Shown here piece after piece: positions 1 to 13,268 of a stretch of 13,268 nt of DNA (its first letter is position 1; every line of letters starts with the position of its first letter). The stretch comes from Anaerolineae bacterium. GTDB taxonomy: Bacteria > Chloroflexota > Anaerolineae > Aggregatilineales > Phototrophicaceae. The stretch is taken from contig JADLHH010000269.1 of assembly GCA_020848855.1 (NCBI GenBank), forward strand, positions 1 through 13,268, in the 5' to 3' direction. Under the pieces are notes generated by a model. The model made no database searches, had not been told where the DNA came from, and was given only the letters and a program-made list of their open reading frames with translations. Position numbers and translations under genes: made by a program.

Positions 1-278
1 AGGCGATCCACGTGAGCTACGGCTTTAAGTGGCTGCGACATCTGCTCGGCGATGACGACGCCGGGCAGGAAGAACTCAAGCGGCTGACCGACGAGGCGCG
101 CGCGAAGATGGCGGAATTTGTGTTCAATCACAAGGACGATCCGGGCGTGTCGCTGGCGCCGTACTTTGACCGGTTGCACGACGTAATCGCCGGGATGGCG
201 TATGAAATCCCCGACGATGGGCTGGACATTCAGTGGGCGCCGGTCGTTGCCGACGATGAGGTTTTGTACGAGTTGTGA
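1..278 (+). CDS. C-terminal end of an unrecognised protein (5' truncated by window)
   Basis: The frame is open from the left edge (first full codon at base 3) to a TGA at 276-278, leaving about 91 residues. A GTG at 12 could serve as a start, but there is no ribosome binding site that can be judged and no in-frame stop upstream, so this is most simply the tail of a longer gene. The segment is acidic and helical-looking (GDDDAGQEELKRLTDEAR), ending in a strand-like acidic tail (VVADDEVLYEL). It has no signal peptide, membrane segment or catalytic motif that I recognise. It lies about 100 bases before a sugar TIM-barrel gene on the same strand, so a role in carbohydrate metabolism is possible but only by position. 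Confidence 0.55.
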   Translation, partial: AIHVSYGFKWLRHLLGDDDAGQEELKRLTDEARAKMAEFVFNHKDDPGVSLAPYFDRLHDVIAGMAYEIPDDGLDIQWAPVVADDEVLYEL

Positions 279-382
279 GTCGGTGTCCCAAATCCGGCTT
301 GCGAAAACGGGCAGGGCATTCGACGCCGGCGAGGTGAGTATGGTGTGTTCGGATGCCGAACTGGATCGCTGGGGAGAACAGT

Positions 383-1198
383 ATGCGGCTTGCAGTGTTT
401 CGCGCTCTGTGGGGCATGACCGGCGCGACCGAACAGCAGATTGACCGGATCGCCGAAGCGGGCTATGACGGCATCGAGGGGTTTATCGGCGCGTCGCCGC
501 TGGACGCAGCGCAGTTTCGCGCTTTGGTCGCGGGGCATGGGCTGAAGCTGATCATGGCGGGCGCGGTCGAGAGCATCGACGCGCTGGAGCCGACGCTCAA
601 GGCGCTGGCGGAGTACCAGCCGATCAAGATTGGGCTGCACAGCGGGCGCGACCACATGACCCGCGACCAGGGACGGGCGTTCTTCGAAGAAGCGCTGCGG
701 GTCGAACAGGAAATCGGCATTCCGGTTTCGCACGAGACGCACCGGGGACGGATGTTCTTCACGCCCTGGGATACGGCTTTCTACCTGCGCGAATTCCCCA
801 TGCTGAAAATTGTGGCGGACTACAGCCACTGGGTCAACGTGTGCGAGCGCCTGCCGGACGATCATCTGGATGCGCTCGACCTCGCCAACGCGCGGACGTT
901 CCATATTCACGCCCGCGTCGGCTACGAGCAAGGTCCGCAGGTTCCCGATCCGTCCGCGCCGGAGTACGCCTCGCAGCTTACCTGGCACGAAAAGCAGTGG
1001 GCGGCGATCATCCGGGCGCGGCAGGCGGCGGGCGATGCGCTGCTGACGGTCACGCCGGAATACGGACCGCCGAATTACCTGCACACGCTGCCGCACACCA
1101 ACGCCCCGGTGGCGGATCTGTGGTCGGTGTGCGTGTGGGGGATGGTGCATTTTCGGCAGCTATTCGGGGCGGTTGTACAGCCGCCCCCGGCAAGCTGA
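383..1198 (+). CDS. Sugar phosphate isomerase/epimerase-like TIM-barrel protein
   Basis: A 271-residue protein of the xylose-isomerase-like (AP endonuclease 2 superfamily) TIM-barrel fold, probably cytoplasmic and metal dependent. I chose the ATG at 383 because GGGGAG lies 6 bases upstream and the protein then opens directly with the first barrel strand (MRLAVFRALWG). An ATG at 353 adds ten residues that do not look like part of the fold. Likely metal ligands sit at the usual strand ends: Glu118 in SHETHRGR, Asp146 in VADYSHW, His176 region in FHIHARVG and Glu226 in TPEYGPP. The HETHRGR and HARVG...GPQVPDP patterns mark an uncharacterised subfamily often found with glycoside hydrolases. The substrate is unknown; isomerase, epimerase or keto-sugar lyase chemistry would all fit. 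It precedes a GH2 glycosidase by 174 bases. Confidence 0.85.
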   Translation: MRLAVFRALWGMTGATEQQIDRIAEAGYDGIEGFIGASPLDAAQFRALVAGHGLKLIMAGAVESIDALEPTLKALAEYQPIKIGLHSGRDHMTRDQGRAFFEEALRVEQEIGIPVSHETHRGRMFFTPWDTAFYLREFPMLKIVADYSHWVNVCERLPDDHLDALDLANARTFHIHARVGYEQGPQVPDPSAPEYASQLTWHEKQWAAIIRARQAAGDALLTVTPEYGPPNYLHTLPHTNAPVADLWSVCVWGMVHFRQLFGAVVQPPPAS

Positions 1199-1372
1199 CC
1201 AGTCTTTGCGGGCAAATGGCACAGAGGTTGCTATCCAGGTAATGGAAACATCGGGGCGGCTGTAGATGCCGCTTCAGCACAAAAGATGCAACTGGCGATG
1301 CAAGGCGTGGGGTAGAAGCAGTCATGAACCGTAGGGGCGTTCAGCGGAGCGCCCCTGCTTCATTATGAGGTT
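1199..1372. other. Intergenic stretch between TIM-barrel gene and GH2 gene
   Basis: There is no open frame worth reporting. The only clear structure is the palindromic element at 1333-1356 just before the GH2 start. I see no convincing -35/-10 pair, so the GH2 gene may be read from an upstream promoter. Confidence 0.5.
1333..1356. repeat. Short palindromic element (AGGGGCG / CGCCCCT hairpin)
   Basis: Perfect 7-bp arms AGGGGCG (1333-1339) and CGCCCCT (1350-1356) flank a 10-base spacer. No T-run follows, so it is a poor intrinsic terminator. GTAGGGGCG...CGCCCCT palindromes resemble short dispersed intergenic repeats (REP-like) that I recall from Chloroflexota and cyanobacteria. Only one copy lies in the window, so repeat status is inferred. 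Confidence 0.4.
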
Positions 1373-3982
1373 ATGATGCACGAAAACGAACGGGCGGAAA
1401 TATTGTCCCTGAACGGGACGTGGCAGATCGAAATTGGTGGCGCGGTGGGCGAAATTCGCGTGCCTGGCGCGTGGGAAGCGCAGGGCTATGACGGCAGGGC
1501 GGGGGTGAACGAGCCGGTCATCTACCGTTGCTCGTTCGTCGTGCCCGCTGAATGGGCGGGCGCAGAAATGATGCTGCGCTTCGGGGCGATCAGCTACTAC
1601 GCCGAGGTGATCGTCAACGGCGTGCCAGTGGGGGCGCACGAGGGCTTATGGACGCCGTTCGAGTGCGACGTGACGCAGGCGATTAAGATTGGCGAAACGA
1701 ATCAACTCGAAGTGCGTGTTGTCAAGCCGGGGCGCGCCGGGGATCGCTTCCCGTACCGCGACGTACTGGTTGGCTTCCTGCCGTATGTGTTCGATACCTT
1801 CGGCGGTATCTGGCAGGATGTGACGCTGGTGGTGCACCGTGCGGGTGGATTCTCCGGTGTGGCTGTACTGCCGGATGCCGACAGCGGAACGGTAGAAATC
1901 CGGTGGCAGCCTTCTCAGGATGGCAACGTAGTGGCAACGATTACAGAAGCGGGCGGAACAACAGTCGCTCAGTCGCGGATATCAGGATCGAAACAGGTGA
2001 CCCTTCGAGTCGATGCGCCCCAGCGCTGGTCGCCCGAAACGCCATCGCTGTATACGCTGACCTTGCAGATTGAACGAGGCGACGAGGTGGTTGCCGAGAC
2101 GACGCGGCGCTTCGGCTTTCGCAAACTGGAAGCCGACGGCGCGCGCCTGCGCCTGAACGGCGAGCCAAGCCACTTGCGCGGCGTGCTCAGTTGGGGCTGG
2201 GATCCCAAGACGCTCGCGCCGATGCCGACCGACGACGAAGTGCGCGACGAATTCCGGCGCGTGCGCGCAATGGGCTTCAACCTGGTCAAGCTGTGCCTGT
2301 TCGTGCCGTCGGAGAACGTGTTCCGCATCGCCGACGAGGAAGGGATGCTGCTGTGGCTCGAACTGCCGCTGTGGCTGCCGAACCTGAACGACCACCTGCG
2401 CGAGCAGGCGCGAATAGAATACGCCGACATCATGGCGTGGGTGCATCACCATCCGTCGGCGGTGATCTACAGCCTCGGCTGCGAGCTGGGCGCGGACATG
2501 GCAGACGCGGCGCTGCTGGATGCGCTGAATGCGACGGTGCGCGGCATGACCCGCGACTGTCTGGTGTGCGACAACAGTGGGTCGGGCGAAGCCTACGCCG
2601 GGCTGAGCTTCGACTACGCCGATTTCAACGATTACCACTTCTACGCCGACCTGCATTATTTCGTGCCGCTGCTTGATCTGTTCCGGCGCGACTGGCGTCC
2701 GGCGCGCCCGCTGATCTTCGGCGAATTCTGCGACGCCGACGATTACCGCGACCCGGCGGCGCTGGAAAACGGGCAGCAGGCGGCGTGGCGCGATTACGAA
2801 GGCATCGAGGGGAATGTCAGCCGCTGGGCGTATATCGAGCAGGAGCAGCGGATGGCGAAAAACGCGTTGCCATTCAGCGACGCGCAAATCGCCAGTATTT
2901 CGCGTCGTCAATCGCTGGTGGTGCGCAAGACCATTCTGGAGCGCACGCGGCTGCGGAACGACATCGGCGGTTACGTGCTGACCGGGCTACGCGACACGCC
3001 GATCAGCACGTCGGGCGTGTTCGACGACAACGGGCGCGCCAAATGGGAGCCGGAGGCGTTCCGCGCCTTCAACGATGACGCGGTGCTGCTGCTGGAGCAG
3101 GGGCGCGCTCGCCGCTGGATGCACGGCGGCGACCGTCCGTACCCCGGCGACCTGTTCAATCATCGTTCCGGCGCGGCGGCGAGCTTCCGCGTGGTGCTGG
3201 CGCACGCGCGGCGCGAATTTGCTGCCGGTGAACTGGTTTGGCGGCTGGTCGCGCCGAATGGCGACGCGCAGGGCGGCACGATTACGCGCGGCAAAGCGCT
3301 GCGGGTTTCGCCTGTCGAGGTTGCGCGGATCGAATTCACCGTGCCGGATGTGGCGCGCGCCGAACAGTGGGCGCTGGAAGTCGAACTCGACGGCGCGGTT
3401 CGCAACCGCTGGGCGCTGTGGTTCTATCCGAAGCTGCCGCCCCTCGAAACGCCGGTGTACGACCCGGCGGGTGTGTTGGACGACCTGAGCAGTCTCCCGA
3501 CGGCTGATCTGTCGCGCGACGAAGCCGTGATCGCCGGGGTGTTTACGCCGGAACTGGAACACTACCTGCGAGCAGGCGGCAGGGCGGTGCTGATCCAGCC
3601 CGGCGCGGGCGCGCTGCCGACGCAGCCCGTCCCGTTCTGGCGCGAGTCGATCAAGCTGCTGTACGACCATCCGGTGATGAACGCCATGCCGCACGCCGGT
3701 TACGCCGATTTGCAGTTCTATCACGTGGCGACCGACCACGCTTTCGACGCGGCGGCGTTCGCCGACATGGAAGTCACCCCGGTGATGCGGCGGCTCGACG
3801 CGCGGCTGTTCACGCTGCTGGATTACGTCGTTGACGTTCGGCTCGGCGCGGGCAGGCTGCTGGCGACGACGCTGCGGCTGCTGGGCGGGGCGGGCGATCA
3901 GGCGTGGGGGCTGGACGGCAACGTCGCCGGTGAGTACCTGCTTCACCAGATGATTCGAGCGCTGGCGTCGCACGTCAATTGA
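1373..3982 (+). CDS. Glycoside hydrolase family 2 protein (beta-galactosidase/glucuronidase-like) with an altered acid/base motif
   Basis: An 869-residue GH2 glycosidase with no signal peptide, so probably cytosolic. Order of parts: jelly-roll sugar-binding domain (about 11-160, opening with LSLNGTWQIE), immunoglobulin-like domain (about 165-250), TIM barrel (about 255-560), a second beta-sandwich (about 600-690) and a Rossmann-like C-terminal region (about 715-869, DEAVIAGVFTPELEHYLRAG) resembling the GATase-like modules of some beta-galactosidases. The acid/base Glu is E371 in VIYSLGCELG and the nucleophile is E451 in RPLIFGEFCD, 80 residues apart as expected. The Asn that normally precedes the acid/base Glu is Cys370. 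Tandem ATGs occur at 1373 and 1376; the second is better spaced from TGAGG at 1366-1370. Substrate cannot be read from sequence; beta-galactoside, beta-glucuronide and beta-mannoside are all possible. Neighbouring sugar isomerases and an oxidoreductase suggest plant or microbial glycan use. Confidence 0.88.
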   Translation: MMHENERAEILSLNGTWQIEIGGAVGEIRVPGAWEAQGYDGRAGVNEPVIYRCSFVVPAEWAGAEMMLRFGAISYYAEVIVNGVPVGAHEGLWTPFECDVTQAIKIGETNQLEVRVVKPGRAGDRFPYRDVLVGFLPYVFDTFGGIWQDVTLVVHRAGGFSGVAVLPDADSGTVEIRWQPSQDGNVVATITEAGGTTVAQSRISGSKQVTLRVDAPQRWSPETPSLYTLTLQIERGDEVVAETTRRFGFRKLEADGARLRLNGEPSHLRGVLSWGWDPKTLAPMPTDDEVRDEFRRVRAMGFNLVKLCLFVPSENVFRIADEEGMLLWLELPLWLPNLNDHLREQARIEYADIMAWVHHHPSAVIYSLGCELGADMADAALLDALNATVRGMTRDCLVCDNSGSGEAYAGLSFDYADFNDYHFYADLHYFVPLLDLFRRDWRPARPLIFGEFCDADDYRDPAALENGQQAAWRDYEGIEGNVSRWAYIEQEQRMAKNALPFSDAQIASISRRQSLVVRKTILERTRLRNDIGGYVLTGLRDTPISTSGVFDDNGRAKWEPEAFRAFNDDAVLLLEQGRARRWMHGGDRPYPGDLFNHRSGAAASFRVVLAHARREFAAGELVWRLVAPNGDAQGGTITRGKALRVSPVEVARIEFTVPDVARAEQWALEVELDGAVRNRWALWFYPKLPPLETPVYDPAGVLDDLSSLPTADLSRDEAVIAGVFTPELEHYLRAGGRAVLIQPGAGALPTQPVPFWRESIKLLYDHPVMNAMPHAGYADLQFYHVATDHAFDAAAFADMEVTPVMRRLDARLFTLLDYVVDVRLGAGRLLATTLRLLGGAGDQAWGLDGNVAGEYLLHQMIRALASHVN

Positions 3983-4007
3983 AGTTACTGTATTGTGAGG
4001 CTAAGAT
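3979..4007 (+). promoter_or_regulatory. Candidate sigma70-type promoter before the second TIM-barrel gene
   Basis: TTGAAG (3979-3984) and TAAGAT (4002-4007) are separated by 17 bases, each matching four of six consensus positions. The -35 overlaps the GH2 stop codon. It would let the 4073-5921 gene pair be transcribed without the GH2 gene. Confidence 0.3.
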
Positions 4008-4072
4008 CGAGGTAGTTTGGACTTTCGACGCGTGCCCGACTGGGATACGCACATTACCCCTGGGAATAGATT

Positions 4073-4816
4073 ATGGCAAAACCGATTGCAGTACAGCTTT
4101 ATTCCGTTCGGGAAGCGCTCGCGCAGGACACCGAGGGCGTGATTCGCAAGATTGCTTCGTTCGGCTATCAGGGTGTCGAGCCGTTCGGCGGTGTGAACGC
4201 GCAGGCGGTTGCCGACCTGTGTGGCGAGCTGGGTCTGAAAATTCCCAGCACGCACATCGGGCTGCCGCTGGGCGAGAAGCGTGACGAGATGCTGAACTTC
4301 GTGCGGATTCTGGGCTGCCAATACCTGGTTGTCCCGTGGATTGCGCCCGACGAATTCAAGACGGTCGAAAGCACGATTGCCGTGTGCAACCGCCTGAATG
4401 AAGCCAACCAGGTCGCGCGCGATGCCGGGCTGACGCTGGTGTATCACAACCACTGGTTCGAATTCGAGCCGCTGGGCGACACGCGCCCCTACAAGGTGAT
4501 GGCGGAACATCTCGACCCGACGATTGCGTTCGAGATTGACACCTACTGGGCGCAGGTTAGCGGCTGCGATCCGGTCGCGGTCATTGACGAACTGGGCACG
4601 CGCGTGCCCCTGCTGCACATCAAGGACGGTCCTGCCGATGGCAGGGAATCGCCGATGGTGGCGGTCGGCGAAGGCGTGATGGATGTCCCGGCGATTGTCG
4701 CGGCGGGCAAGCACGCCGAATGGCTGATCGTCGAGCTGGATCGCTGCGCGACCGACATGCTGGAAGCAGTGCGGACGAGCTACGGCAATCTGGAGCAGAT
4801 CGCCCGTGGAAACTAA
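4073..4816 (+). CDS. Sugar phosphate isomerase/epimerase (xylose isomerase-like TIM barrel)
   Basis: A 247-residue TIM-barrel protein of the IolE/hydroxypyruvate-isomerase-like group, cytoplasmic and probably metal dependent. It opens with the family's typical first strand ([10 protein letters not shown]). Likely metal and substrate residues are His125 and His127 in YHNHWFEF, Glu154 and Asp156 in FEIDTYWA, His182 in LLHIKDG and Glu221 in IVELD, plus the VGEG loop near 198-201. The length is slightly short for the group (usually 250-290) but all the expected motifs are present. The start ATG at 4073 follows GGGAA with 7 bases between. The gene ends one base before the Gfo/Idh/MocA gene, so the two are almost surely co-transcribed and likely act on one sugar. 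Proteins of this kind are known as isomerases, epimerases and, in some systems, 3-keto-glycoside lyases; the exact reaction is not readable here. Confidence 0.88.
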
Positions 4817-4817
4817 G

Positions 4818-5921
4818 ATGCGTGTCGGCATTATCGGGTGCGGCAACATTTTCCCGGCGTATGTGAAGGGCTGCCGTGCGTTCAAGATTCTGGAAGTCGT
4901 CGCCTGCGCCGACCTACTGCCGGAACGCGCCGGGGAACGGGCGAAGGAATTCGATATTCCGAAAGCACTGTCGGTCGAAGGACTGCTGAGCGACCCGGAA
5001 ATCGACGTGGTGATCAACCTGACCGTGCCGGTGGCGCACGCCGAAATCAGCCGGGCGATTCTGGCAGCCGGGAAGCACGTCCACAGCGAGAAGCCGCTGG
5101 CGATCACCCGCGAGGATGGCAGGTCGATCCTCGACGCCGCCGGCGAATGCGGGCTGCGCGTCGGCTGCGCGCCGGATACATTCCTCGGCGGCGGCTTGCA
5201 GACCTGCCGCAAGCTGATCGACGACGGGGTGATCGGCGTGCCGGTAGCGGCGACGGCGTTCATGGCGTCGCATGGTCCCGAAGCGTGGCACCCGAACCCG
5301 GACTTCTTCTACAAGCTCGGCGGCGGCCCGCTGCTGGACATGGGTCCCTATTACCTCACGGCGCTGGTTCACCTGCTCGGTCCGGTTCGTCGGGTGAGCG
5401 GCTCGGCGCGTATTTCGTTCCCGGAGCGAATCGCCACCAGCGAGGCGCTGAACGGGCACCGGATCGCCGTCGAAGTGCCGACCCACGTCGCGGGGGTGCT
5501 CGACTTCGGCAGCGGGGCGGTGGCGACCATCCTGACGAGCTTCGACGTGTGGGCGCACAACCTGCCGCGTATCGCAGTCTACGGTTCGGAAGGGACGCTG
5601 AGCGTGCCCGACCCGAACACGTTCGGCGGTCCGGTCAGGCTGCGGCTGGGCGGCGAAAGCGAGTGGCGGGAAGTCGCGCTAACGCACAGCGCCGATGTGG
5701 GGCGCGGGATCGGCGTGGCAGACCTGGCATATGGCTCGGTGTACGGACGCCCGCACCGCGCCAGCGGCGAACTCGCGTATCACGTGCTTGACCTGATGCA
5801 CGCGCTGATCGACTCGTCGGCTGCCGAACGGCATATCCTCATTGAGAGCACGTGCGCCCAGCCCGCGCCGCTGCCGGTCGGTTTGCCGGTGGGCGAACTG
5901 GACGCTTCGCTGGCTTCATGA
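4818..5921 (+). CDS. Gfo/Idh/MocA family NAD(P)-dependent oxidoreductase
   Basis: A 367-residue dehydrogenase, probably oxidising or reducing a sugar or cyclitol hydroxyl. The N-terminal Rossmann domain (1-120) opens with RVGIIGCGN, matching the GxGxxx dinucleotide-binding loop. EKPLAIT (Glu91-Lys92-Pro93) carries the family's catalytic Lys. The C-terminal half (about 125-350) is the alpha/beta dimerisation domain. In the [13 protein letters not shown] segment Asp174 is kept, but the classical catalytic His four residues on is Tyr178; this DMGPYY variant recurs in a recognisable subfamily, so it is probably functional. I prefer the ATG at 4818, one base after the preceding stop. A GTG at 4806 would add four residues and overlap the upstream gene; GGAG near 4792 could serve it. 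Pairing with a TIM-barrel isomerase is a common arrangement in inositol and keto-sugar pathways. Confidence 0.9.
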
Positions 5922-5966
5922 CTGCGGGGGTCGGGCGGGTGCGAACTGCCCCGTATCCAACCCTTT

Positions 5967-6167: not shown

Positions 6168-6995
6168 ATGTCCAAGCGAAAGATTCTCGTCACGCTGTCC
6201 GAGTACGGCTACTGGGGCGAGGAATTGATTGGTCCGCTCGACGTTATGATCGAGCAAGGATGGGAATACACGTTTGTCACGCCGCGCGGGCGCAAGCCGC
6301 CGGCGCTGCCGCCGAGCATGGAAGTCGGCTTCTACGATCCGCCGCTTCACAAAGTCGTCACCGACGAATACTACGCCAGGCGGACGAAGGAAGTCCATGA
6401 ATCCGACCTGCTGGCGAACCCGGTGAACCTGGAAGCGTGGTTCCCGGAGCGCCCCTATTTCAACGGACCCAACTACGGGCACGATCTCGAAGCATACTAT
6501 AACGCCCGCGACAAAGCCTGGAAAGACCTGGAGCAGTACGACGCGCTGGTGATGCCGGGCGGCAGCGGTCCGATGATCGACATCAACAACAACCTGCGCA
6601 TCCACGACCTGATCCTCGGCTTTGTCAAGCAGGACAAGCTGGTGGCGGCGGAATGCTACTGCGTGACGGCGCTCGCCTTCGCGCGCGAGCTTGAAGGGCG
6701 CAAGAGCATTATCGCCGGCAAGCACGTCACCGGGCACGCGGTCGAATACGACTGGAAAGAGGGCACGGGCGTCATGGGCATCAACGCCGACTTCCGCTGG
6801 CCGTTCTACCCGCTGGAATACATCCTGCGCGATGCGACCCAGCCGGGCGGGCAGTATCATGGAGGCGTCGGGCGCACGATTTCGACGATTCTCGACTATC
6901 CGTTCCTGACCGGGCGTTCGACGCAGGACTCGCGTCTGGTTGGCGACCTGCTGGTCGAAGTTCTGGACAACGGTCTGCGCCGCTACGGATGGTAA
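6168..6995 (+). CDS. DJ-1/PfpI family protein, long form
   Basis: A 275-residue protein of the DJ-1/PfpI (class I glutamine amidotransferase-like) superfamily, cytoplasmic. Visible landmarks are an N-terminal Glu-rich turn (GYWGEELIGPLDVM, residues 14-27), the strand and loop LVMPGGSGPM (127-136) and the nucleophile elbow VAAECYCVTALAFA (158-171), in which Cys163 aligns with the catalytic Cys. The residues after the Cys are Tyr-Cys-Val where relatives have His-Gly-Pro, so this is a divergent elbow. At 275 residues it resembles Hsp31-like members rather than the roughly 190-residue core; an insert lies at about 45-120. AGGAG lies about 11 bases before the ATG, rather far but the best site. Members are proteases, hydratases, glyoxalases or deglycases; the activity here is unknown. 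It is the first gene of region 3 and is followed by a strong terminator. Confidence 0.82.
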   Translation: MSKRKILVTLSEYGYWGEELIGPLDVMIEQGWEYTFVTPRGRKPPALPPSMEVGFYDPPLHKVVTDEYYARRTKEVHESDLLANPVNLEAWFPERPYFNGPNYGHDLEAYYNARDKAWKDLEQYDALVMPGGSGPMIDINNNLRIHDLILGFVKQDKLVAAECYCVTALAFARELEGRKSIIAGKHVTGHAVEYDWKEGTGVMGINADFRWPFYPLEYILRDATQPGGQYHGGVGRTISTILDYPFLTGRSTQDSRLVGDLLVEVLDNGLRRYGW

Positions 6996-7009
6996 GCTGC
7001 TAACGGCAA

Positions 7010-7042
7010 AACTCGGTCAACCAAGATTCGGTTGACCGAGTT
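7010..7042 (+). terminator. Strong intrinsic terminator after the first DJ-1 gene
   Basis: Perfect 13-bp arms AACTCGGTCAACC (7010-7022) and GGTTGACCGAGTT (7030-7042) enclose a 7-base loop, followed by GTTTTCG. It begins 15 bases after the DJ-1 stop and ends 35 bases before the next start. No promoter is obvious between it and the ThDP gene, so read-through may set the level of that gene. Confidence 0.85.
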
Positions 7043-7077
7043 GTTTTCGCCCGTCAATGAAGGGACAAGTGCAAACT

Positions 7078-8763
7078 ATGCCAGGTAAATCCGGGCGCTT
7101 TGCGATGATCGAGCAATTCCTTGCCGACGACATCCATTACATGTTCGGCAATCCGGGCACGGTCGAGCAGGGCTTCCTCGATTCGCTGGAAGAATATCCC
7201 CAGTTCCGGTACATCATGGGGCTGCAGGAGACGATCGCGGTAGCGATGGCGGACGGCTATGCCCGTGCCACCAAGCGCCCGACAGTCGTGCAGCTTCACA
7301 GCGGTGTGGGGCTGGGCAATGGCATCGGCATGATGTATCAGGCGATGCGCGGTCATGCGCCGCTGGTGGTGATCGCCGGCGAGTCGGGCATCAAATACGA
7401 TGCGATGGACGCGCAGATGGCGGCTGATCTGGTGTCGATGGCGAAGCCGGTGACGAAATGGTCGACGCGCGTGATTGACCCGCGCTCGCTGCTGCGAGTG
7501 CTGCGCCGGGCAATCAAGATCGCGGCGACTCCGCCGATGGGTCCGGTGTTCGTGTGCGTCCCGGCGGATGTGCTGGACGCCGACAACGACGAGCCGATCT
7601 TCCCGACCTCGATCCCGGAGACGCGGGTCGCGCCTGCGCCGGAACTGGTCGCGCGGGCGGCTGACATGCTGGTCGGCGCTCAACACCCGATGATCATCAT
7701 CGGTGACGGCATCGCCTTCTCGTACGCGCAGGATGAGCTGGCGCGGGTCGCCGAACTGCTCGGCGCGGAAGTGTGGGGCGCGGACGCTTCGGAGACCAAT
7801 CTCAGCTTCACTCATCCGTTGTGGAAGGGGATGCTGGGGCACATGTTCGGTGCGTCCAGCAGCAAGGTGACCATCAAAGCCGACGCGGTGCTGATCGCCG
7901 GGACATACGTCTTCCCCGAAGTGTTCCCATACTTCGAAGACGTGTTCAGCCCGAACACCCCCGTCGTTCACTTCGACCTCAACGCTTACGAAATTGCCAA
8001 GAACTTCCCGGTCGATCTCGGCGTCGTCAGCGACCCGAAGCTTTCGCTCGCGGCGCTGGCAGATGCGCTCGCCAGCCGTCAGAGCGAGAGCCAGAAGCAG
8101 GCGGCGCAGGCACGGCTGCAAGCCAGCCGCAGCGCCAACGACGCCGCGCGTCAGCAGCAGCTTGATCACGACCGCGCGGTGCGAGACGAAGTGCCGATGC
8201 ACGCTTCGGTGTTCATGGAAGAACTGTCGAAGCACGTTCCATCGGACGTGATGATCTTCGATGAGGCGCTGACCGTCTCGCCGGATGTGACGCGCTATAT
8301 GCCGCCCACGCTGCCGGATCACTTCTTCCAGACGCGCGGCGGCTCGCTCGGCGTCGGTATCCCCGGCGCGCTGGGGATCAAGATCGCGCATCCTGAAAAG
8401 ACGGTGATCGGCTTCACCGGCGACGGCGGCAGCATGTATACGATTCAGGCGTTGTGGACGGCGGCGCACTTCAAGATCGGCGCCAAGTTCGTCATCTGCA
8501 ACAACCAGACCTATATGCTCCTCAAGCTGAACATCATGCAGTACTGGAAAGACCAGATTGGCGAGCCGGCGCATCAGTTCCCGCACAGCTTCGACCTGGG
8601 CGACCCGGTGGTCGACTTCGCGGCGCTGGCTCGCTCAATGGGCGTGCCGGCGGTGCGCGTGGATCATCCCGATCAGGTTGCCGACGCGGTCAAGCAGATG
8701 CTGGAAATAGATGGTCCGTTCCTGGTCGATATGGTGATCAGCAGCCGTGTCCCGGGCACGTGA
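7078..8763 (+). CDS. Thiamine diphosphate-dependent enzyme, benzoylformate decarboxylase-like
   Basis: A 561-residue ThDP enzyme with the three-domain plan of the decarboxylase/acetolactate synthase group: Pyr domain (about 1-170), central domain (about 180-330) and PP domain (about 370-550). Glu51 in GLQETIAVAMADGYA is the conserved cofactor-activating Glu. His74 in QLHSGVGLGN matches benzoylformate decarboxylase His70. The Mg/ThDP motif starts at GFTGDGGSMYTIQALWTAAH (Asp449) and ends at Asn475-Asn476. The IQALWTAAH...NN pattern is closest to benzoylformate decarboxylase among enzymes I know. The FGNPGT loop has Thr where that enzyme has its active-site Ser26, and no His is seen at the second catalytic His position (GTYVFPEVFPYF), so substrate or reaction probably differ: a 2-keto acid decarboxylase, a carboligase or an aldehyde-forming lyase. 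An ATG at 7057 is possible, but AGGGA at 7061-7065 favours 7078. Confidence 0.88.
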   Translation: MPGKSGRFAMIEQFLADDIHYMFGNPGTVEQGFLDSLEEYPQFRYIMGLQETIAVAMADGYARATKRPTVVQLHSGVGLGNGIGMMYQAMRGHAPLVVIAGESGIKYDAMDAQMAADLVSMAKPVTKWSTRVIDPRSLLRVLRRAIKIAATPPMGPVFVCVPADVLDADNDEPIFPTSIPETRVAPAPELVARAADMLVGAQHPMIIIGDGIAFSYAQDELARVAELLGAEVWGADASETNLSFTHPLWKGMLGHMFGASSSKVTIKADAVLIAGTYVFPEVFPYFEDVFSPNTPVVHFDLNAYEIAKNFPVDLGVVSDPKLSLAALADALASRQSESQKQAAQARLQASRSANDAARQQQLDHDRAVRDEVPMHASVFMEELSKHVPSDVMIFDEALTVSPDVTRYMPPTLPDHFFQTRGGSLGVGIPGALGIKIAHPEKTVIGFTGDGGSMYTIQALWTAAHFKIGAKFVICNNQTYMLLKLNIMQYWKDQIGEPAHQFPHSFDLGDPVVDFAALARSMGVPAVRVDHPDQVADAVKQMLEIDGPFLVDMVISSRVPGT

Positions 8764-8804
8764 AGCAAATTGAAATGATTAACGATGCAAAGTAGGAGTA
8801 TTGT

Positions 8805-9248
8805 ATGCCGAACCCATTGAGTCATGAAGCCGTCTACGCGATGGCGGTGGAGTGGTACGGCGGTCTGGACGATCACGTTCCAGAGCCGCGCCTGCTGAAG
8901 CTGCTGGTCGAAGAGGGGCTGGAACAGCAGTGGCCGGATTACCACGTTCAGAACCTGGAAGATTTCGACGGCTGGTACCAGCGCGCGCTGGGGCTGTTCT
9001 TCGATGAACACCATACCATCAAGGAACTCACGGTGACGCCGAGCGCGGATGGAACCTATGCGGACGTGAAGGTGTTCGTCAACTGGAAGGCGCGCGTGTG
9101 GACGCACCGCGAGGCGCGCAGCAAGTTCCTGAACCTGGACATTCATCAGACGTGGGTGGTCGTGCCGTCCCCGGACGGGACGAAGCCGCTGATCAAATTC
9201 ATTCGGTTTGACGACGGTACGCCGCTGGAAGGTTCCGACACGCTGTAA
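8805..9248 (+). CDS. NTF2/SnoaL-like small protein (first of three)
   Basis: A 147-residue protein with AGGAG six bases before its ATG. It has the look of an NTF2-like alpha+beta cone: two N-terminal helices, a YQRALGLFFDEHHTIKELTV segment, then long strands (YADVKVFVNWKARVW; LDIHQTWVVV; LIKFIRFD). There is no signal peptide or membrane segment. Family assignment is by pattern and weaker than for the next two genes. NTF2-like proteins act as small dehydratases, isomerases or cyclases, or simply bind ligands in a hydrophobic pocket. It follows the ThDP gene by 41 bases with no terminator between, so the two are likely one transcript and may act on the same product. A strong stem-loop follows 20 bases after its stop. 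Confidence 0.7.
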   Translation: MPNPLSHEAVYAMAVEWYGGLDDHVPEPRLLKLLVEEGLEQQWPDYHVQNLEDFDGWYQRALGLFFDEHHTIKELTVTPSADGTYADVKVFVNWKARVWTHREARSKFLNLDIHQTWVVVPSPDGTKPLIKFIRFDDGTPLEGSDTL

Positions 9249-9267
9249 GCACGGCGGTACGACAGAG

Positions 9268-9308
9268 AGTCGTGAAACGACGACCCCAAACGGCATCGTT
9301 TCACGACT
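9268..9308 (+). terminator. Long perfect stem-loop after the first NTF2-like gene
   Basis: Arms AGTCGTGAAACGA (9268-9280) and TCGTTTCACGACT (9296-9308) are perfectly complementary over 13 bp with a 15-base loop. No T-run follows (TATACTCTGG), so termination may be weak or factor-assisted; an mRNA-stabilising 3' end is an alternative. Confidence 0.6.
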
Positions 9309-9318
9309 TATACTCTGG

Positions 9319-9356
9319 ATACATTCAAAGCCTGGTGTATCACAGCCGAGAGGCTG
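9319..9356 (+). promoter_or_regulatory. Structured leader before the second NTF2-like gene
   Basis: Two small hairpins stand side by side: GATACA/TGTATC with a 12-base loop (9319-9342), and CAGCC-GAGA-GGCTG, a 5-bp stem with a GNRA-type tetraloop (9343-9356). Together with the 13-bp stem just upstream they make the 9268-9356 stretch unusually foldable. I could not match it to a riboswitch class I know. No good promoter was found in 9249-9400. Confidence 0.3.
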
Positions 9357-9400
9357 AGCAGTACCTAAGGTAACATTTCCAGTTGAATGGAGAGTATAAC

Positions 9401-9826
9401 GTGGCAAACAAAGACGTAGTTTTCCAGTACTATGATCTGTTCGCTAAGGGTGACTTCGACACGATGATCAAGGAGTGCTTCCACCCGAACATGACCTGGA
9501 CGATGCCGGGACATCACCCGCTCTCCGGGAAGATGCAGGGCGCTCCCGCTGCTGCCGCGTTTCTCCAGGCGCTGAGTAAAGCAGGCGTGTGGGTTGAAGA
9601 CATCCACATCGGCGAACTGGACGACGGCACGATTGTCGAGAAGCACATGGGGCACGCCAAGTATGACGATGGACGTGTGGTCGACTTCCCGACCTGTACA
9701 ACCTATGGCTTCAAAGATGGCAAGATTTTTGATGTGCGCGTCCACACCGGCGGGCAGCACGTAGTTGATGCCTATTTCTGGTGGAAGTTCCCGCTGAAGG
9801 GCGTTCCCGCTCGCCTGGCGGAATAA
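9401..9826 (+). CDS. SnoaL/NTF2-like protein (second of three)
   Basis: A 141-residue SnoaL-like protein. I chose the GTG at 9401 because GGAGAG lies six bases upstream and the resulting start (MANKDVVFQYYDLFAKGDFDT) is the classic first helix of the family. A TTG at 9383 would place that ribosome site inside the coding region. The helix is followed by MIKECFHPNMTWTMPGHHPL (residues 22-41), the usual pocket-forming segment, then GAPAAAAFLQALSKAG and alternating strands through DIHIGELDDGTIVEKHMGHAKY, TTYGFKDGKIFDVRVHTGG and the end. Such proteins are small cytosolic dimers that bind or isomerise carbonyl or polyketide-like ligands; many are uncharacterised. It stands between two long stem-loop regions, so it may be expressed at a level different from its neighbours. 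Confidence 0.82.
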   Translation: MANKDVVFQYYDLFAKGDFDTMIKECFHPNMTWTMPGHHPLSGKMQGAPAAAAFLQALSKAGVWVEDIHIGELDDGTIVEKHMGHAKYDDGRVVDFPTCTTYGFKDGKIFDVRVHTGGQHVVDAYFWWKFPLKGVPARLAE

Positions 9827-9963
9827 GCTGATTGCACTGGACTTATCTGGCGCGAACGGCATTCGGGGGCAAGGGTGAACGGGTCGTCTGCCAAGCCGAA
9901 TCATAACCGTCACCCTCGCTATTCACAACCGGGGCGTTTTGCGTGTAGACCTCAAAATTATCA

Positions 9964-10016
9964 CTGCGGCTGAAAGATGCGAATTGTGTTGGCTAGCATT
10001 CTCCTTTCAGCCGCAG
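9964..10016 (+). terminator. Stem-loop with 13-bp perfect stem
   Basis: CTGCGGCTGAAAG (9964-9976) pairs perfectly with CTTTCAGCCGCAG (10004-10016) around a 27-base loop, followed by GATTTTGTTG. The following T-rich bases make it a plausible terminator for the second NTF2-like gene, although the loop is longer than usual. Confidence 0.55.
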
Positions 10017-10020
10017 GATT

Positions 10021-10050
10021 TTGTTGTCTAGAGTAAGATTCTTCTATAAA
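10021..10050 (+). promoter_or_regulatory. Candidate promoter with operator between -35 and -10
   Basis: TTGTTG (10021-10026) and TATAAA (10045-10050) are 18 bases apart. The sequence at 10024-10035 matches TTGTCTAGACAA at 10 of 12 positions and covers the spacer, where a bound repressor would block RNA polymerase. The third NTF2-like gene starts 160 bases downstream. Confidence 0.45.
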
Positions 10051-10209
10051 GATTTCTTTCAGCGCACCGGGCTTACAATGGAGAAAGAACCACGCTCAGC
10101 GGCAGTATCCAGCTTGATATCGGGGGTTGGAACGCCCGATTTCATTACGAAGTCGACCAACTTCCGATACTTTAACGGTTTCAAGCGCAAAACTAAGGGA
10201 GAATGATAC

Positions 10210-10599
10210 ATGATGAACCGTGAAATAATTGAGAAGTACTTCGAGTACGCTAATGCCGGTGAATGGGATAAGTGGTGCGACCTGTTCAGCGAGGACGCAG
10301 TCTATGAGGAACAGTTGGCAGGGCGTATTGAAGGTCGTGAGACATTGCGCCCGATGATGGCTGGTTTCCCCAACGCTTATAAATCGTTCGTCAATACGCC
10401 GCGGCACTTCATCGTCGAAGCTGATCGCGCAGCGGCGGTATCGCATATCTCGGCTCAAGCGATGAAATATCCTGACGAGAAGATTGAAGCCGAGGCGATG
10501 CTGTTCCTGCAAATGAAAGACGGCTTGATCGTCTTTGCACAGAACTTCCATGATTCGAAGCCGTTTGCACCGTTCCTGCGTCAAATCAGCGAAGGGTAG
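10210..10599 (+). CDS. SnoaL/NTF2-like protein (third of three)
   Basis: A 129-residue SnoaL-like protein. Its first helix and pocket segment (EIIEKYFEYANAGEWDKW, then CDLFSEDAVYEEQLAGRIEG) are typical of the family, as is the closing strand pair (EAEAMLFLQMKDGLIVFAQN). GGGAGA lies 7 bases before the ATG at 10210; a second ATG follows at once at 10213. Similarity to the second NTF2-like protein is limited to fold-level patterns, so the three are not recent duplicates. The GMC oxidoreductase starts 12 bases after its stop, so the pair is probably translated from one message, suggesting this small protein binds or processes the substrate or product of that flavoenzyme. The exact chemistry is unknown. 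Confidence 0.85.
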   Translation: MMNREIIEKYFEYANAGEWDKWCDLFSEDAVYEEQLAGRIEGRETLRPMMAGFPNAYKSFVNTPRHFIVEADRAAAVSHISAQAMKYPDEKIEAEAMLFLQMKDGLIVFAQNFHDSKPFAPFLRQISEG

Positions 10600-10611
10600 G
10601 CAGGGAAGAAG

Positions 10612-12147
10612 ATGAGCGACACTTACGATTACATCGTGATTGGGGCAGGCGCAGCAGGTTCGGTGGTTGCCAACCGTCTGTCCGAAACCAAGAGCGCCCG
10701 CGTCCTCCTGCTCGAAGCCGGGACGGGGGAAATTCCCGAAACGGTGCGTATTCCTGCTGCCTGGCCGATGCTGTGGCACACGAACATCGACTGGGATTAC
10801 CAGAGCACGCCGCAGGATGCGCTCGGCGGTCGCCGGGTATACGAGCCGCGTGGCAAGGTGGTCGGCGGTTCGAGCGATTTTTACATCATGATGCATATTC
10901 GCGGGCATGTTTCGGACTACGACAACTGGGCGTACAACGGCGCGCCGGGCTGGGCGTATGACGACGTGCTGCCTTATTTCAAGAAGATGGAAGACCAGGA
11001 AGACGATACCAGCCCGTGGGCGGGTCATGGCGGCATGATCAGCGTGATCAATGCCAAGAATCACAACCCGAACCCGACTTCGGCGGCATTTATCGAAGCC
11101 TGCGTCGAACTGGGCTACCCGCGCACCGACGACTTCAACGGTCCCGACATGATCGGCGCAGGGTGGCATCATGTGAACATCAAGGACGGCAAGCGCCACA
11201 GCGCCAACGAAGCGTATATCGAGCCGATTCTGGGCAAGCGGAAGAATTTCACGCTGAGCACCAATTCGCAGGCGACCCGGCTGCTGTTCCGGGGAAACCG
11301 CTGCACAGGTGTCGAATACAAGCAGGGGCGCAAGAAGGTCAAGGCGTATGCCGACAAGGAAGTGATCGTCTGCGGTGGCGCGATCAACTCGCCCCAACTG
11401 CTGATGCTGTCCGGCATTGGCAACCCGGAACATCTCAGGCAGCATGGCATTGACGTAAAAGTGGGGCTGCCGGGTGTCGGCGAAAATTTCCACAATCATG
11501 TGCTGACCGGGCTGATCTACGAGACGACGCGCCCCGTACCGCCGCCGAACCTCAACATGAGCGAGTCGGCGATGTTCGTCAAGTCCGACCCCGGCTGGGT
11601 GGGACCCGACCTGCAGATGGCGTTCGTGCATGTGCCGTTCGACATCATCATCGGCGGTAAAAACCCGAATGCGGTCAGCATGCTGCCGGGACTGGTACGT
11701 CCACTGTCGCGCGGCTGGGTGCGCCTGAACAGCGCCGACCCGCTCGACAAGCCGCTGATCAACGCCAATTATCTCAGCCTGCAGTCGGACGTGGATCGCC
11801 TGATCAGGACGATTGAAATCGGGCGCGAGATTTTCAACGCCAAAGCCTTCTCGGACTGGATTACCGGCAAGGAACTGCTGCCCGGTCCGCGCTACAAGAC
11901 CAAGAAGCAGCTCGAAACGTTTGTGAAGCAGCGCGCCGATTCGTACCACCATCAAGCCGGGTCGTGCAAGATGGGCTTGGACGCGATGGCGGTGGTCGAC
12001 CCCGAATGCCGCGTGCACGGCGTCGAGGGGCTGCGCGTCGTCGACGCCAGCGTGATGCCATTCGTACAGTCGGGCAACTGCCACGCCGGCATCCTCATGA
12101 TTGCCGAAAAGGTCTCCGACCTGATCAAGCAGGCGAACGGCGCATAA
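10612..12147 (+). CDS. GMC family FAD-dependent oxidoreductase (choline dehydrogenase-like)
   Basis: A 511-residue flavoprotein that probably oxidises an alcohol or sugar hydroxyl. The FAD-binding Rossmann motif is at the N-terminus (YIVIGAGAAGSVVANRL, then LLLEAG at 33-38). GMC signature 1 is at about 80-98 (RGKVVGGSS...MMHIRG), with DFYI where most members have a SING-like segment near the flavin. Signature 2 is canonical (GGAINSPQLLMLSGIG, 255-270). The catalytic pair is His447 in YHHQAGSCKMG and His491 in GNCHAGILMIAEK, so a His-His arrangement as in aryl-alcohol oxidase. Length is normal for bacterial members. No signal or membrane segment is seen, so it is cytosolic. GGGAAG upstream supports the ATG at 10612. 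It lies 12 bases after an NTF2-like gene and ends 15 bases before a terminator. Substrate unknown. Confidence 0.92.
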   Translation: MSDTYDYIVIGAGAAGSVVANRLSETKSARVLLLEAGTGEIPETVRIPAAWPMLWHTNIDWDYQSTPQDALGGRRVYEPRGKVVGGSSDFYIMMHIRGHVSDYDNWAYNGAPGWAYDDVLPYFKKMEDQEDDTSPWAGHGGMISVINAKNHNPNPTSAAFIEACVELGYPRTDDFNGPDMIGAGWHHVNIKDGKRHSANEAYIEPILGKRKNFTLSTNSQATRLLFRGNRCTGVEYKQGRKKVKAYADKEVIVCGGAINSPQLLMLSGIGNPEHLRQHGIDVKVGLPGVGENFHNHVLTGLIYETTRPVPPPNLNMSESAMFVKSDPGWVGPDLQMAFVHVPFDIIIGGKNPNAVSMLPGLVRPLSRGWVRLNSADPLDKPLINANYLSLQSDVDRLIRTIEIGREIFNAKAFSDWITGKELLPGPRYKTKKQLETFVKQRADSYHHQAGSCKMGLDAMAVVDPECRVHGVEGLRVVDASVMPFVQSGNCHAGILMIAEKVSDLIKQANGA

Positions 12148-12161
12148 CGGTCTGGTATTTT

Positions 12162-12194
12162 CGGTGGAGAGGCATCGCCCCTCCACCGCATTTT
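12162..12194 (+). terminator. Intrinsic terminator after the GMC gene
   Basis: CGGTGGAG (12162-12169) pairs with CTCCACCG (12181-12188). An inner GGC/GCC stem closes an ATC loop after one A-C mismatch. CATTTTCG follows directly. It lies 14 bases after the GMC stop and 34 bases before the next start. Confidence 0.75.
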
Positions 12195-12222
12195 CGCGTG
12201 ATATAACCTGGGACAAACATCC

Positions 12223-12804
12223 ATGAGTTTGCAGGGAAAAAAAGTCGGCGTACTGATCGAAAGCGACTACTACGAGAAGGAAATCTTCTACTACGAGCAT
12301 CGCTTTCCCGAAGAAGGCATCGAACTGCATTTTCTAAGCCGCCTGTGGGGGCAGCCTTATCTGACGTTCACCGGGCACGAGTACAAAGCGCCGTTTGAAT
12401 GTCACGAGAGCTTCGAGGACATGAGCGACGAGACGCTGCGCAGCTTTTCGGCGATCATCGTTCCTTCAGCCATCGTATCGGATCGTCTGCGGTATACTCC
12501 AGATGTGCATGATCCATCTCCAGCAGTGAAATTCCTGGCGCGGGCTTTTGCCGAGCCGGATATCGTCAAGGGGATTATCTGCCACGGCATGTGGCTGTGT
12601 TCGTACAAACCGGAACTGGTGCGCGGGCGCCGCGTAACCTGCCACAATAACCTGTATGGCGACGTGGTGAACATGGGCGCGATTTACACGGACGAGGACG
12701 TGGTGGTGGACGGCGACCTGATCACCGGACGCACGGGCGGTCACTGTCACCTGTTTGCGCGTAAGATCATCGACACTCTGTACGAAAAGGAGGGGGCACG
12801 CTGA
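12223..12804 (+). CDS. DJ-1/PfpI family protein, short form
   Basis: A 193-residue DJ-1/PfpI protein of the usual core length. It starts with strand VGVLIESDYYEKE, in which Glu18 or Glu20 would be the Glu that supports the catalytic Cys. The nucleophile elbow is canonical, GIICHGMWL, with Cys120 followed by His-Gly. The end has the GRTGGHCHLFARKII pattern that in relatives reads GR.P.D. It is not a close copy of the long DJ-1 at 6168: the elbow differs and the insert is missing. Possible activities are hydratase (isonitrile-hydratase-like), glyoxalase or deglycase. GGGAC about 9 bases upstream is a weak ribosome site. Its TGA shares one base with the start of the VOC gene (TGATG), so the two are translationally coupled. 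Confidence 0.87.
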   Translation: MSLQGKKVGVLIESDYYEKEIFYYEHRFPEEGIELHFLSRLWGQPYLTFTGHEYKAPFECHESFEDMSDETLRSFSAIIVPSAIVSDRLRYTPDVHDPSPAVKFLARAFAEPDIVKGIICHGMWLCSYKPELVRGRRVTCHNNLYGDVVNMGAIYTDEDVVVDGDLITGRTGGHCHLFARKIIDTLYEKEGAR

Positions 12805-13229
12805 TGATTTTTTCGCATGTTGCCTTAACCTGCAAAGACCAGCAGGCGACCGAGCATTACTACACGCAGTATTTCGGGTTCAGGCGCGCTGCCGTCTTCG
12901 ATATTGGCGGCGGCAACCAGTTGATCTTCATCAAGATGGGAAATGTCTACCTGGAACTGTTCCCCGGCGCAGACCCGCGCGTAGGCGACGCGCCGGCTGC
13001 CGATGGCGGCAACGCGCAGGGCGTGCGCCACATCGCGTTCCAGGTTGACAATGCCGATGTGACGATTGCGGCGATGGGTGATGCCGCGAAGATCACCCTC
13101 GGTCCACTCGATTTTGACGGCTTTATCCCCGGCTGGCGCACCTATTGGCTTGCCGACCCGGACGGGAACATCGTCGAGGTCAGCCAGGGGTTCAAAGACC
13201 AAGCTAATCCGCCCGCGTTTGAGTCATAA
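12804..13229 (+). CDS. VOC family protein (glyoxalase/dioxygenase-like)
   Basis: A 141-residue member of the vicinal oxygen chelate superfamily, with two beta-alpha-beta-beta-beta halves. The likely metal ligands are all present: His5 (IFSHVALTC), Glu51 (VYLELF), His in GVRHIAFQVD (about 77) and Glu in DPDGNIVEVSQG (about 125). That set fits a metal-dependent lyase, epimerase or isomerase of the glyoxalase I or methylmalonyl-CoA epimerase sort better than a metal-free binding protein. AAGGAGGGGG lies just upstream, and the start overlaps the DJ-1 stop by one base. Pairing with a DJ-1 protein suggests handling of a reactive 2-oxo compound, which is an inference from context. Confidence 0.88.
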   Translation: MIFSHVALTCKDQQATEHYYTQYFGFRRAAVFDIGGGNQLIFIKMGNVYLELFPGADPRVGDAPAADGGNAQGVRHIAFQVDNADVTIAAMGDAAKITLGPLDFDGFIPGWRTYWLADPDGNIVEVSQGFKDQANPPAFES

Positions 13230-13241
13230 GATGAGGACACT

Positions 13242-13268
13242 GTGAATAACTTCGACTTTTCCTTTTCC
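13242..13268 (+). CDS. Start of a further gene, cut by the window edge
   Basis: GAGGA (13233-13237) lies four bases before a GTG at 13242 that opens nine codons (VNNFDFSFS) running off the window. The gap after the VOC stop is only 12 bases, as in an operon. Too short to assign a product. Confidence 0.4.

What the first reader, a model, noticed from the sequence alone, without database searches (positions are those of the whole stretch)
6168..13229. Possible undescribed pathway: ThDP lyase + GMC oxidase + three NTF2-like + two DJ-1 + VOC
Eight consecutive same-strand genes encode enzymes that all act on carbonyl or hydroxy-carbonyl chemistry. I know no named pathway with this set. A plausible scheme is alcohol oxidation by the GMC protein, C-C cleavage or ligation by the ThDP enzyme, and rearrangement or detoxification of reactive 2-oxo products by the DJ-1, NTF2-like and VOC proteins. 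Gene identities are seen; the pathway is inferred.
Basis: partly seen in the sequence, partly recalled or inferred. Interest (0 to 1): 0.75.

Follow-up and report, generated by a model that had tools for sequence, protein, structure and literature searches.

The report
Widespread undescribed ThDP–DJ-1 gene cluster
The eight neighbouring genes belong to a gene cluster found together in bacteria of about ten phyla, often beside glycogen-degrading genes, and they probably encode an unstudied route that oxidises, dehydrates and splits a sugar-derived compound.

Summary
In detail: eight same-strand genes (6168-13229) encode a long DJ-1-like protein (DJL), a ThDP enzyme, three NTF2-fold proteins, a GMC oxidoreductase, a short DJ-1 protein and a VOC protein. 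The window ends inside a ninth gene, very probably an AGE-type epimerase (13242 onward).

The ThDP enzyme is a discrete clade, and DJL goes with it: the same 25 of 192 Nostocaceae genomes, the same 3 of 199 genomes of a Chloroflexota class, the same 14 of 72,556 plasmid records. In 52 loci with at least 8 kb on both sides DJL occurs in 51, NTF2a 39, short DJ-1 39, VOC 31, GlgX-type 30, AGE 27, GMC 26. Around 15 other ThDP genes of nine of these genomes: DJL, VOC, GMC, AGE and GlgX 0, NTF2a 1, short DJ-1 1.

Best explanation: a pathway fed by alpha-glucan-derived sugar: oxidation (GMC), dehydration (NTF2a), C-C cleavage (ThDP), dicarbonyl handling (DJ-1, VOC). Linkage and conserved catalytic residues are shown; substrate, order and product are inferred. 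Ten term searches of open-access papers found no description.

The parts
6168..6995 (+). DJL: long DJ-1/PfpI superfamily protein (Hsp31-like fold), near-constant partner of the ThDP enzyme
7057..8763 (+). ThDP-dependent enzyme, benzoylformate-decarboxylase-like but a separate clade
   Evidence: Pfam TPP N/M/C; in plasmids 14 records at 50-65% identity, next rows listed 31-32%; one clade member in each of 9 genomes
8805..9248 (+). NTF2a: NTF2-fold protein without a Pfam model, putative Asp22-His70 dehydratase dyad
9383..9826 (+). NTF2b: SnoaL_2 protein (TTG start as listed; the true start may be later)
   Evidence: PF12680 49 bits, cut-off 27
9964..10016 (+). 13-bp perfect inverted repeat with a T-rich stretch after it, possible internal terminator or attenuator
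   Evidence: fold z -3.74
10210..10599 (+). NTF2c: SnoaL_2 protein
   Evidence: PF12680 60.9 bits, cut-off 27
10612..12147 (+). GMC-family FAD oxidoreductase
   Evidence: PF00732 and PF05199; H447 38 of 38 and N489 37 of 38 in one GMC group
12223..12804 (+). DJS: short DJ-1/PfpI protein with Glu-Cys-His set
   Evidence: PF01965 64.2 bits; E13, C120, H121 47 of 47 aligned
12804..13229 (+). VOC protein with glyoxalase-I-like metal-ligand pattern
   Evidence: PF00903 41.8 bits; E51 41/41, E125 38/41, H76 36/41, H or Q at position 5 37/41
13242..13268 (+). 5' end of a ninth gene, probably the AGE-type epimerase, cut by the window end
   Evidence: reads (V)NNFDFSFS; resembles the N-termini of AGE relatives; VOC-AGE order in nine loci and L003

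Best explanation
The eight genes are most of a conserved, mobile metabolic cluster whose core is the DJL/ThDP pair. I think it encodes a pathway acting on a polyhydroxylated, probably alpha-glucan-derived compound. The ninth gene (AGE) and the linked GlgX/GH13 enzymes would supply and epimerise or isomerise the sugar; the GMC flavoenzyme (or another oxidoreductase in other versions) would oxidise a hydroxyl to a ketone; NTF2-fold dehydratases or isomerases would eliminate water beside that ketone; the ThDP enzyme would cleave, or decarboxylate, the resulting 1,2-dicarbonyl or 2-oxo compound; DJL, DJS and the VOC protein would convert the reactive 2-oxoaldehyde-type products. The logic resembles myo-inositol catabolism (oxidise, dehydrate, ThDP cleavage, isomerise; recalled) with different protein families. 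Shown: linkage, co-inheritance, folds, conserved catalytic residues. Inferred: substrate, order of steps, product.
Against: DJL is missing from 4 of 90 loci: two Acidimicrobiia loci that have only the short DJ-1 (L050, L059), L038 (3.5 kb upstream seen) and L058 (only 0.2 kb upstream held); it could lie elsewhere in those genomes. GMC is absent from 20 of 52 well-covered loci and NTF2-like genes from 13 of 52 by ORF clustering, so not every step is universal. AGE also occurs without ThDP in 42 of 192 Nostocaceae genomes, so it may serve another pathway; neither AGE nor GlgX-type genes were seen in 18 of 52 well-covered loci, including both Chloroflexota ones, the closest relatives of the window. 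Up to 11 NTF2-like genes per locus are hard to fit into one linear pathway. In the control a true NTF2a homologue (59% identity) lies near another ThDP gene (L094). There is no substrate, product or expression evidence.
Confidence: 0.37

Rival explanations
1. Carbonyl-stress island: the genes are co-regulated but act in parallel, each removing a different reactive carbonyl or electrophile (DJ-1 and VOC as glyoxalases, NTF2 proteins as binding or detoxifying proteins), switched on with glycogen and trehalose metabolism under stress.
For: DJL has an Hsp31/glyoxalase-III-like fold; DJS keeps Glu-Cys-His; STAS, RsbW or SpoIIE genes lie in 11 of 52 well-covered loci and STAS is fused to AGE in L041, L043 and L090; TreS, GlgE or MalQ neighbours in Streptomyces and Nostoc plasmids; many NTF2 paralogues.
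Against: The near one-to-one DJL/ThDP pairing suggests a shared reaction; DJL has Tyr164 instead of the His after the catalytic Cys (25 of 25).
Confidence: 0.3
2. Small-molecule biosynthesis: the ThDP enzyme joins two carbonyl compounds (acyloin formation, as recalled for ScyA of scytonemin), and NTF2/SnoaL-type cyclases, GMC and VOC proteins tailor the product.
For: SnoaL-type proteins are often cyclases (family knowledge); Nif11 or NHLP leader-peptide genes lie in some cyanobacterial versions and in Gemmobacter; accessory genes vary between lineages.
Against: Of the 30 neighbour families found in at least 6 loci none is labelled PKS, NRPS or ligase, and the five unlabelled ones tested are a porin, a zinc dehydrogenase, an aldo-keto reductase, a pullulanase-X25 protein and a 2Fe-2S protein; glycogen enzymes recur.
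Confidence: 0.22
3. Chance neighbourhood of unrelated housekeeping or catabolic genes.
For: The genes upstream of 5921 are indeed unrelated to the set.
Confidence: 0.01

Closest known systems
Benzoylformate decarboxylase (BFD/MdlC)
   Same: Best solved relatives of the ThDP enzyme (6a50, 1bfd and others); conserved ThDP glutamate (E58) and the BFD His70 counterpart (H81).
   Different: Scores 317.6 against the curated cut-off of 493; the BFD His281 position falls on Val289/Phe290 (P-E-V-F invariant in 11 of 11 rows).
myo-Inositol catabolism (iol), recalled
   Same: Logic: oxidation, dehydration, ThDP-dependent C-C cleavage, isomerisation.
   Different: Oxidation and dehydration would be done by GMC and NTF2 proteins, not by Gfo/Idh and TIM-barrel proteins; the TIM-barrel and Gfo/Idh genes upstream in the window have no match in the other 90 loci.
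Hsp31 / glyoxalase III (DJ-1 superfamily)
   Different: The residue after Cys is Tyr164 in 25 of 25; the three NCBIfam DJ-1 scores listed are far below cut-off.
LinA / scytalone dehydratase / BaiE dehydratases (NTF2 fold)
   Different: 10-16% identity; no Pfam match; activity unknown.
Scytonemin ScyA/ScyC pair (recalled, not compared)
   Same: A ThDP enzyme next to a putative cyclase in cyanobacteria.
   Different: No comparison was run here; GMC, DJ-1, AGE and GlgX are not, as I recall, part of that cluster.

Membership tests
Benzoylformate decarboxylase | curated NCBIfam equivalog score (NF005485) | tested here: not met
   317.6 bits against 493
Benzoylformate decarboxylase | catalytic His70 and ThDP Glu47 counterparts (BFD numbering recalled) | tested here: met
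   H81 and E58 invariant in 11 of 11 rows; alignments
Benzoylformate decarboxylase | catalytic His281 counterpart (recalled) | tested here: not met
   position falls on V289/F290, both invariant in 11 of 11 rows
NTF2 / SnoaL fold | NTF2 fold | tested here: met
   NTF2a by model; NTF2b and NTF2c by Pfam SnoaL_2 above cut-off
Asp-His NTF2 dehydratases (LinA, scytalone dehydratase) | Asp-His dyad in the pocket | tested here: inconclusive
   D22/H70 align with 3ef8 D25 and a His by a weak sequence match, same spacing as LinA D25/H73 (recalled); pocket geometry not measured
Hsp31 glyoxalase III | Cys-His-Glu catalytic set (recalled) | tested here: not met
   DJL: C163 and E19 invariant, but Y164 where the set has His (25 of 25)
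PfpI/DJ-1 type (DJS) | Glu and Cys-His motif | tested here: met
   E13, C120, H121 in 47 of 47 aligned (2 short members of 49 left out)
GMC oxidoreductase | GMC N and C domains and His-Asn pair | tested here: met
   Pfam; H447 38/38, N489 37/38 (a second GMC group of 14 ORFs was not aligned)
Glyoxalase I-type VOC | four metal ligands (pattern recalled) | tested here: met
   window has H5, E51, H76, E125; conservation 37 (18 H, 19 Q), 41, 36 and 38 of 41
AGE epimerase (ninth gene, seen whole only in relatives) | AGE barrel with two catalytic His (recalled) | tested here: inconclusive
   PF07221 59.7 bits in L016 (cut-off 23.4) but no match in L061 and L073; H375 and H516 invariant in 16 of 16 and aligned with GHDIE and YHNS of 5zig; only 9 codons lie in the window
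GlgX glycogen debranching enzyme (linked gene in relatives) | curated TIGR02100 score | tested here: met
   700.1 and 717.2 bits against 640.9 for L003 and L001; the AMY-type gene of L007 does not reach it (91.5)
myo-inositol (iol) pathway | IolE/IolG-type genes conserved with the ThDP gene | tested here: not met
   the window's TIM-barrel and Gfo/Idh proteins have no blastp match (E 1e-6) in the ORFs of the other 90 loci
Anti-phage defence system | PADLOC model match | tested here: not met
   0 families for 8 of 8 proteins

The most novel reading that the evidence does not exclude
The cluster encodes a new branch of glycogen-linked sugar metabolism: a DJ-1-type protein is the dedicated partner (substrate presenter, or product-releasing hydrolase) of a ThDP lyase, and STAS partner-switching proteins, sometimes fused to the AGE epimerase, control the carbohydrate enzymes directly rather than a sigma factor, so that under stress bacteria of about ten phyla divert alpha-glucan carbon through a keto-sugar dehydration and cleavage route to a product not yet known.
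Probability: 0.2. Interest if true: 0.85.

Novelty: new variant of a known kind. Interest (0 to 1): 0.61.

Why it matters
A gene set kept together across about ten phyla, on chromosomes and plasmids, with two proteins that co-occur exactly in three independent sets searched, is unlikely to be a loose collection; no paper describing it turned up in the open-access text searched. It gives a DJ-1-superfamily protein a nearly fixed enzymatic partner, which would make the disputed biochemical role of this superfamily testable in one defined pathway, and it may add a route to glycogen and stress physiology of cyanobacteria and actinobacteria. It also points to an NTF2 family without a Pfam match.

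Tried and rejected
Own genome: none held, so context beyond the window rests on relatives. Rfam: no RNA family at gathering scores. Defence: PADLOC nothing. Literature: ten searches. Seven listed nothing; one search listed PMC9739823, PMC4694148, PMC10607838 and PMC4167512. I saw only these search listings with the beginnings of the abstracts; no paper was opened, and nothing in the listings mentions this cluster. Only open-access PMC text was searched, by words, so 'undescribed' is limited to that. A link to the scytonemin pair was considered and not tested. The upstream sugar operon (3-5921) was considered as part of the pathway and rejected. I expected AGE to be confined to this cluster; it is not (67 of 192 genomes, 42 without ThDP). 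DJL counts: ORF clustering gave 80 of 91 loci because longer overlapping frames had been picked; tblastn gave 88 of 90, of which two, in L050 and L059, were cross-hits of the short DJ-1, so the right figure is 86 of 90 and 51 of 52 well-covered loci. I had taken five AGE proteins for STAS fusions from the alignment; Pfam confirms three (L041, L043, L090) and finds no STAS in L061 and L073.

Limits: the 80 loci are the best of 403 relatives, biased towards close ones and cyanobacteria; I opened 10 of the 14 close plasmid hits. Residue conservation was counted on chosen rows: ThDP 11, DJL 25, NTF2a 43, AGE 16. Phylum labels are mine from record titles, partly given by the tree tool; many records are MAGs and could be misbinned (L049 is flagged UNVERIFIED_CONTAM). 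Hypergeometric values treat genomes as independent, which they are not. Several control loci are short (4.4 to 19.9 kb).

Full report
What is in the window. Eight + strand genes lie at 6168-13229 as described: a long DJ-1-type protein (DJL), a ThDP enzyme, three small proteins, a GMC oxidoreductase, a short DJ-1 protein (DJS) and a VOC protein (Pfam). Four more complete genes upstream (two xylose-isomerase-like TIM barrels, a GH2 glycosidase and a Gfo/Idh protein) form a different unit: they end at 5921, 246 bp before DJL; a terminator-like site lies at 5937-5958 (such sites are not more frequent than in shuffles, 8 against 6.7); an AGGAG lies 11 nt before the DJL start; and none of the four has a blastp match (E 1e-6) among the ORFs of the 90 other loci. 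At the other end the last 27 bases read (V)NNFDFSFS. AGE-type proteins in relatives begin in the same way (for example MNRIDFSFSDMIAGYV in L041) and directly follow the VOC gene in nine loci (L004, L016, L033, L036, L061, L066, L073, L082, L086) and in L003. So the window is very probably cut inside a ninth gene.

A discrete ThDP clade. Against plasmids the ThDP protein has 14 records at 50-65% identity; the next rows listed are at 31-32% (1516 weaker records were not listed). Nine whole genomes each have one clade member (E 7.9e-266 or better) and paralogues no better than 1.3e-78; the 25 Nostocaceae genomes with it have one each, but the locus L073 holds two. A scan of genome contigs gave 403 relatives, of which the best 80 were fetched. 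By record titles and tree labels they come from Chloroflexota, Cyanobacteriota, Actinomycetota, Deinococcota, Planctomycetota, Pseudomonadota, Thermodesulfobacteriota, Myxococcota, a candidate phylum (Desantisbacteria) and one Bacillota record flagged as contaminated; the plasmids add Bacteroidota. A tree places the window among Chloroflexota and Deinococcota (highest identity 79%, L012) and needs 18 label changes where 9 is the minimum, so transfer between phyla is likely, in line with plasmid carriage.

Conserved neighbourhood. In 90 loci tblastn finds NTF2a in 68, DJS 57, VOC 44, AGE 39, GlgX-type 39, GMC 36, EthD 17. DJL, counted where it is the best-matching family, is in 86; L050 and L059 have only DJS, L038 has neither, and L058 holds too little upstream sequence. 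DJL lies within 1 kb upstream of ThDP on the same strand in 78 of 87 loci with room for it; one search adds L023 and the second ThDP copy of L073. Of 52 loci with at least 8 kb on both sides: DJL 51, NTF2a 39, DJS 39, VOC 31, GlgX-type 30, AGE 27, GMC 26, AGE or GlgX 34. By ORF clustering, GMC of either group is in 32 of 52, any of GMC, SDR or FAD oxidoreductase in 40, any NTF2-like in 39. As a control, the regions around 15 other ThDP genes of nine of these genomes were fetched: DJL, VOC, AGE, GMC, GlgX 0 of 15, NTF2a 1, DJS 1, SnoaL group EC 2; the nine cluster loci gave 9, 7, 4, 6, 6, 9, 7 and 3. The NTF2a control hit is a true homologue (59% identity to that of L011), the DJS and EC hits are distant (28-32%).

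Co-occurrence. Among 192 Nostocaceae genomes ThDP is in 25 and DJL in exactly the same 25, at 23-711 bp (in G278 DJL is split over two contigs). NTF2a is in 22, of which 20 are ThDP genomes, at 77-1538 bp. AGE is in 67, including all 25 ThDP genomes: in 22 of them within 35 kb on the same contig, in one at 94 kb (G363, whose ThDP place matches that on the 120-kb circular plasmid, so it is nearer across the start), in two on another contig. Among 199 genomes of the class of the L014 genome (a Chloroflexota record) ThDP and DJL are in the same 3. ThDP was in 4 of 194 genomes drawn from the cyanobacterial phylum. In plasmids the 14 records with DJL at 48% or more are the 14 with ThDP at 50% or more. 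The cluster is therefore rare and patchy but internally strict. DJL relatives number 3644 proteins clustered at 90% (E 0.001, so not all need be orthologues).

Wider setting. AGE-type proteins here are divergent (PF07221 59.7 bits in L016; no PF07221 match in L061 and L073) and seem to carry roughly 100 extra N-terminal residues (my reading); in L041, L043 and L090 a STAS domain follows. GlgX of two loci passes the curated cut-off. AGE and a GH13 enzyme lie within 1.5 kb in 20 of 27 loci that hold both. STAS, RsbW or SpoIIE genes lie in 11 of 52. Streptomyces plasmids add GlgE, TreS, and GalU or NDP-sugar synthase; Nostoc plasmids add MalQ, and one a glucosidase, glucose dehydrogenase and aquaporin. 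Five recurrent families that had no label are an OprB carbohydrate porin (10 loci), a zinc dehydrogenase, an aldo-keto reductase, a pullulanase-X25 protein and a 2Fe-2S protein. NTF2-like genes number 0 to 11 per locus.

Mechanism. ThDP enzyme: E58 and H81 are invariant; the BFD His281 position is not His, so benzoylformate chemistry as such is not expected. GMC: H447 and N489 conserved; nearest solved relatives are an enzyme named chloramphenicol-inactivating oxidoreductase, alcohol and choline oxidases and pyridoxine 4-oxidase, which does not fix a substrate. NTF2a: H70 43/43 and D22 39/43 fall on a His and D25 of 3ef8 (E 0.34). DJS: Glu-Cys-His 47/47; VOC: metal-ligand pattern. DJL: Cys163 and Glu19 invariant but Tyr164 follows the Cys, so it is Hsp31-like in fold but probably not a standard glyoxalase III. 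Oxidation, dehydration, ThDP cleavage and dicarbonyl conversion of a sugar-derived compound is the most economical reading (0.37; lowered by 0.01 after the DJL recount). A parallel-acting carbonyl-stress island (0.30) and a small-molecule pathway (0.22) remain open.

Novelty. Ten full-text term searches found no paper describing the cluster (listed under Tried and rejected). The enzymes are of known families; the combination and its DJL/ThDP core appear undescribed within that search.

Noticed in passing
window 9964-10016: A 13-bp perfect inverted repeat in the 383-bp gap between NTF2b and NTF2c folds unusually well (z -3.74) and is followed by a T-rich stretch; it may split the cluster into two transcription units.
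   Followed up: partly
window 3-5921: A separate sugar-catabolic operon: two xylose-isomerase-like TIM barrels, a GH2 glycosidase and a Gfo/Idh oxidoreductase, after a partial gene without a Pfam match.
   Followed up: partly
L002:12748-14199: A SnoaL_2 domain fused to ankyrin repeats in the cluster of Nostoc edaphicum; an ORF family with this label occurs in 8 loci.
   Followed up: no
L041, L043, L090 (AGE genes): AGE-type epimerases with a C-terminal STAS domain, suggesting direct partner-switch control of an enzyme.
   Followed up: partly
L005, L007, L039, L058, L070: Pairs of ORFs matching Nif11-type leader peptides beside EthD or GMC genes within the cluster (Nif11 confirmed by Pfam for L007).
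   Followed up: no
Nostocaceae genomes: The AGE clade occurs without ThDP/DJL in 42 of 192 genomes, so AGE has a life of its own.
   Followed up: no
L094:2970-3413: A second NTF2a homologue (59% identity) near an unrelated ThDP gene in the genome of L013.
   Followed up: no
L004, L013, L014, L015, L021, L050, L059: Arrays of 7 or more NTF2/SnoaL-like genes in one cluster (up to 11 per locus), unexplained by a linear pathway.
   Followed up: partly
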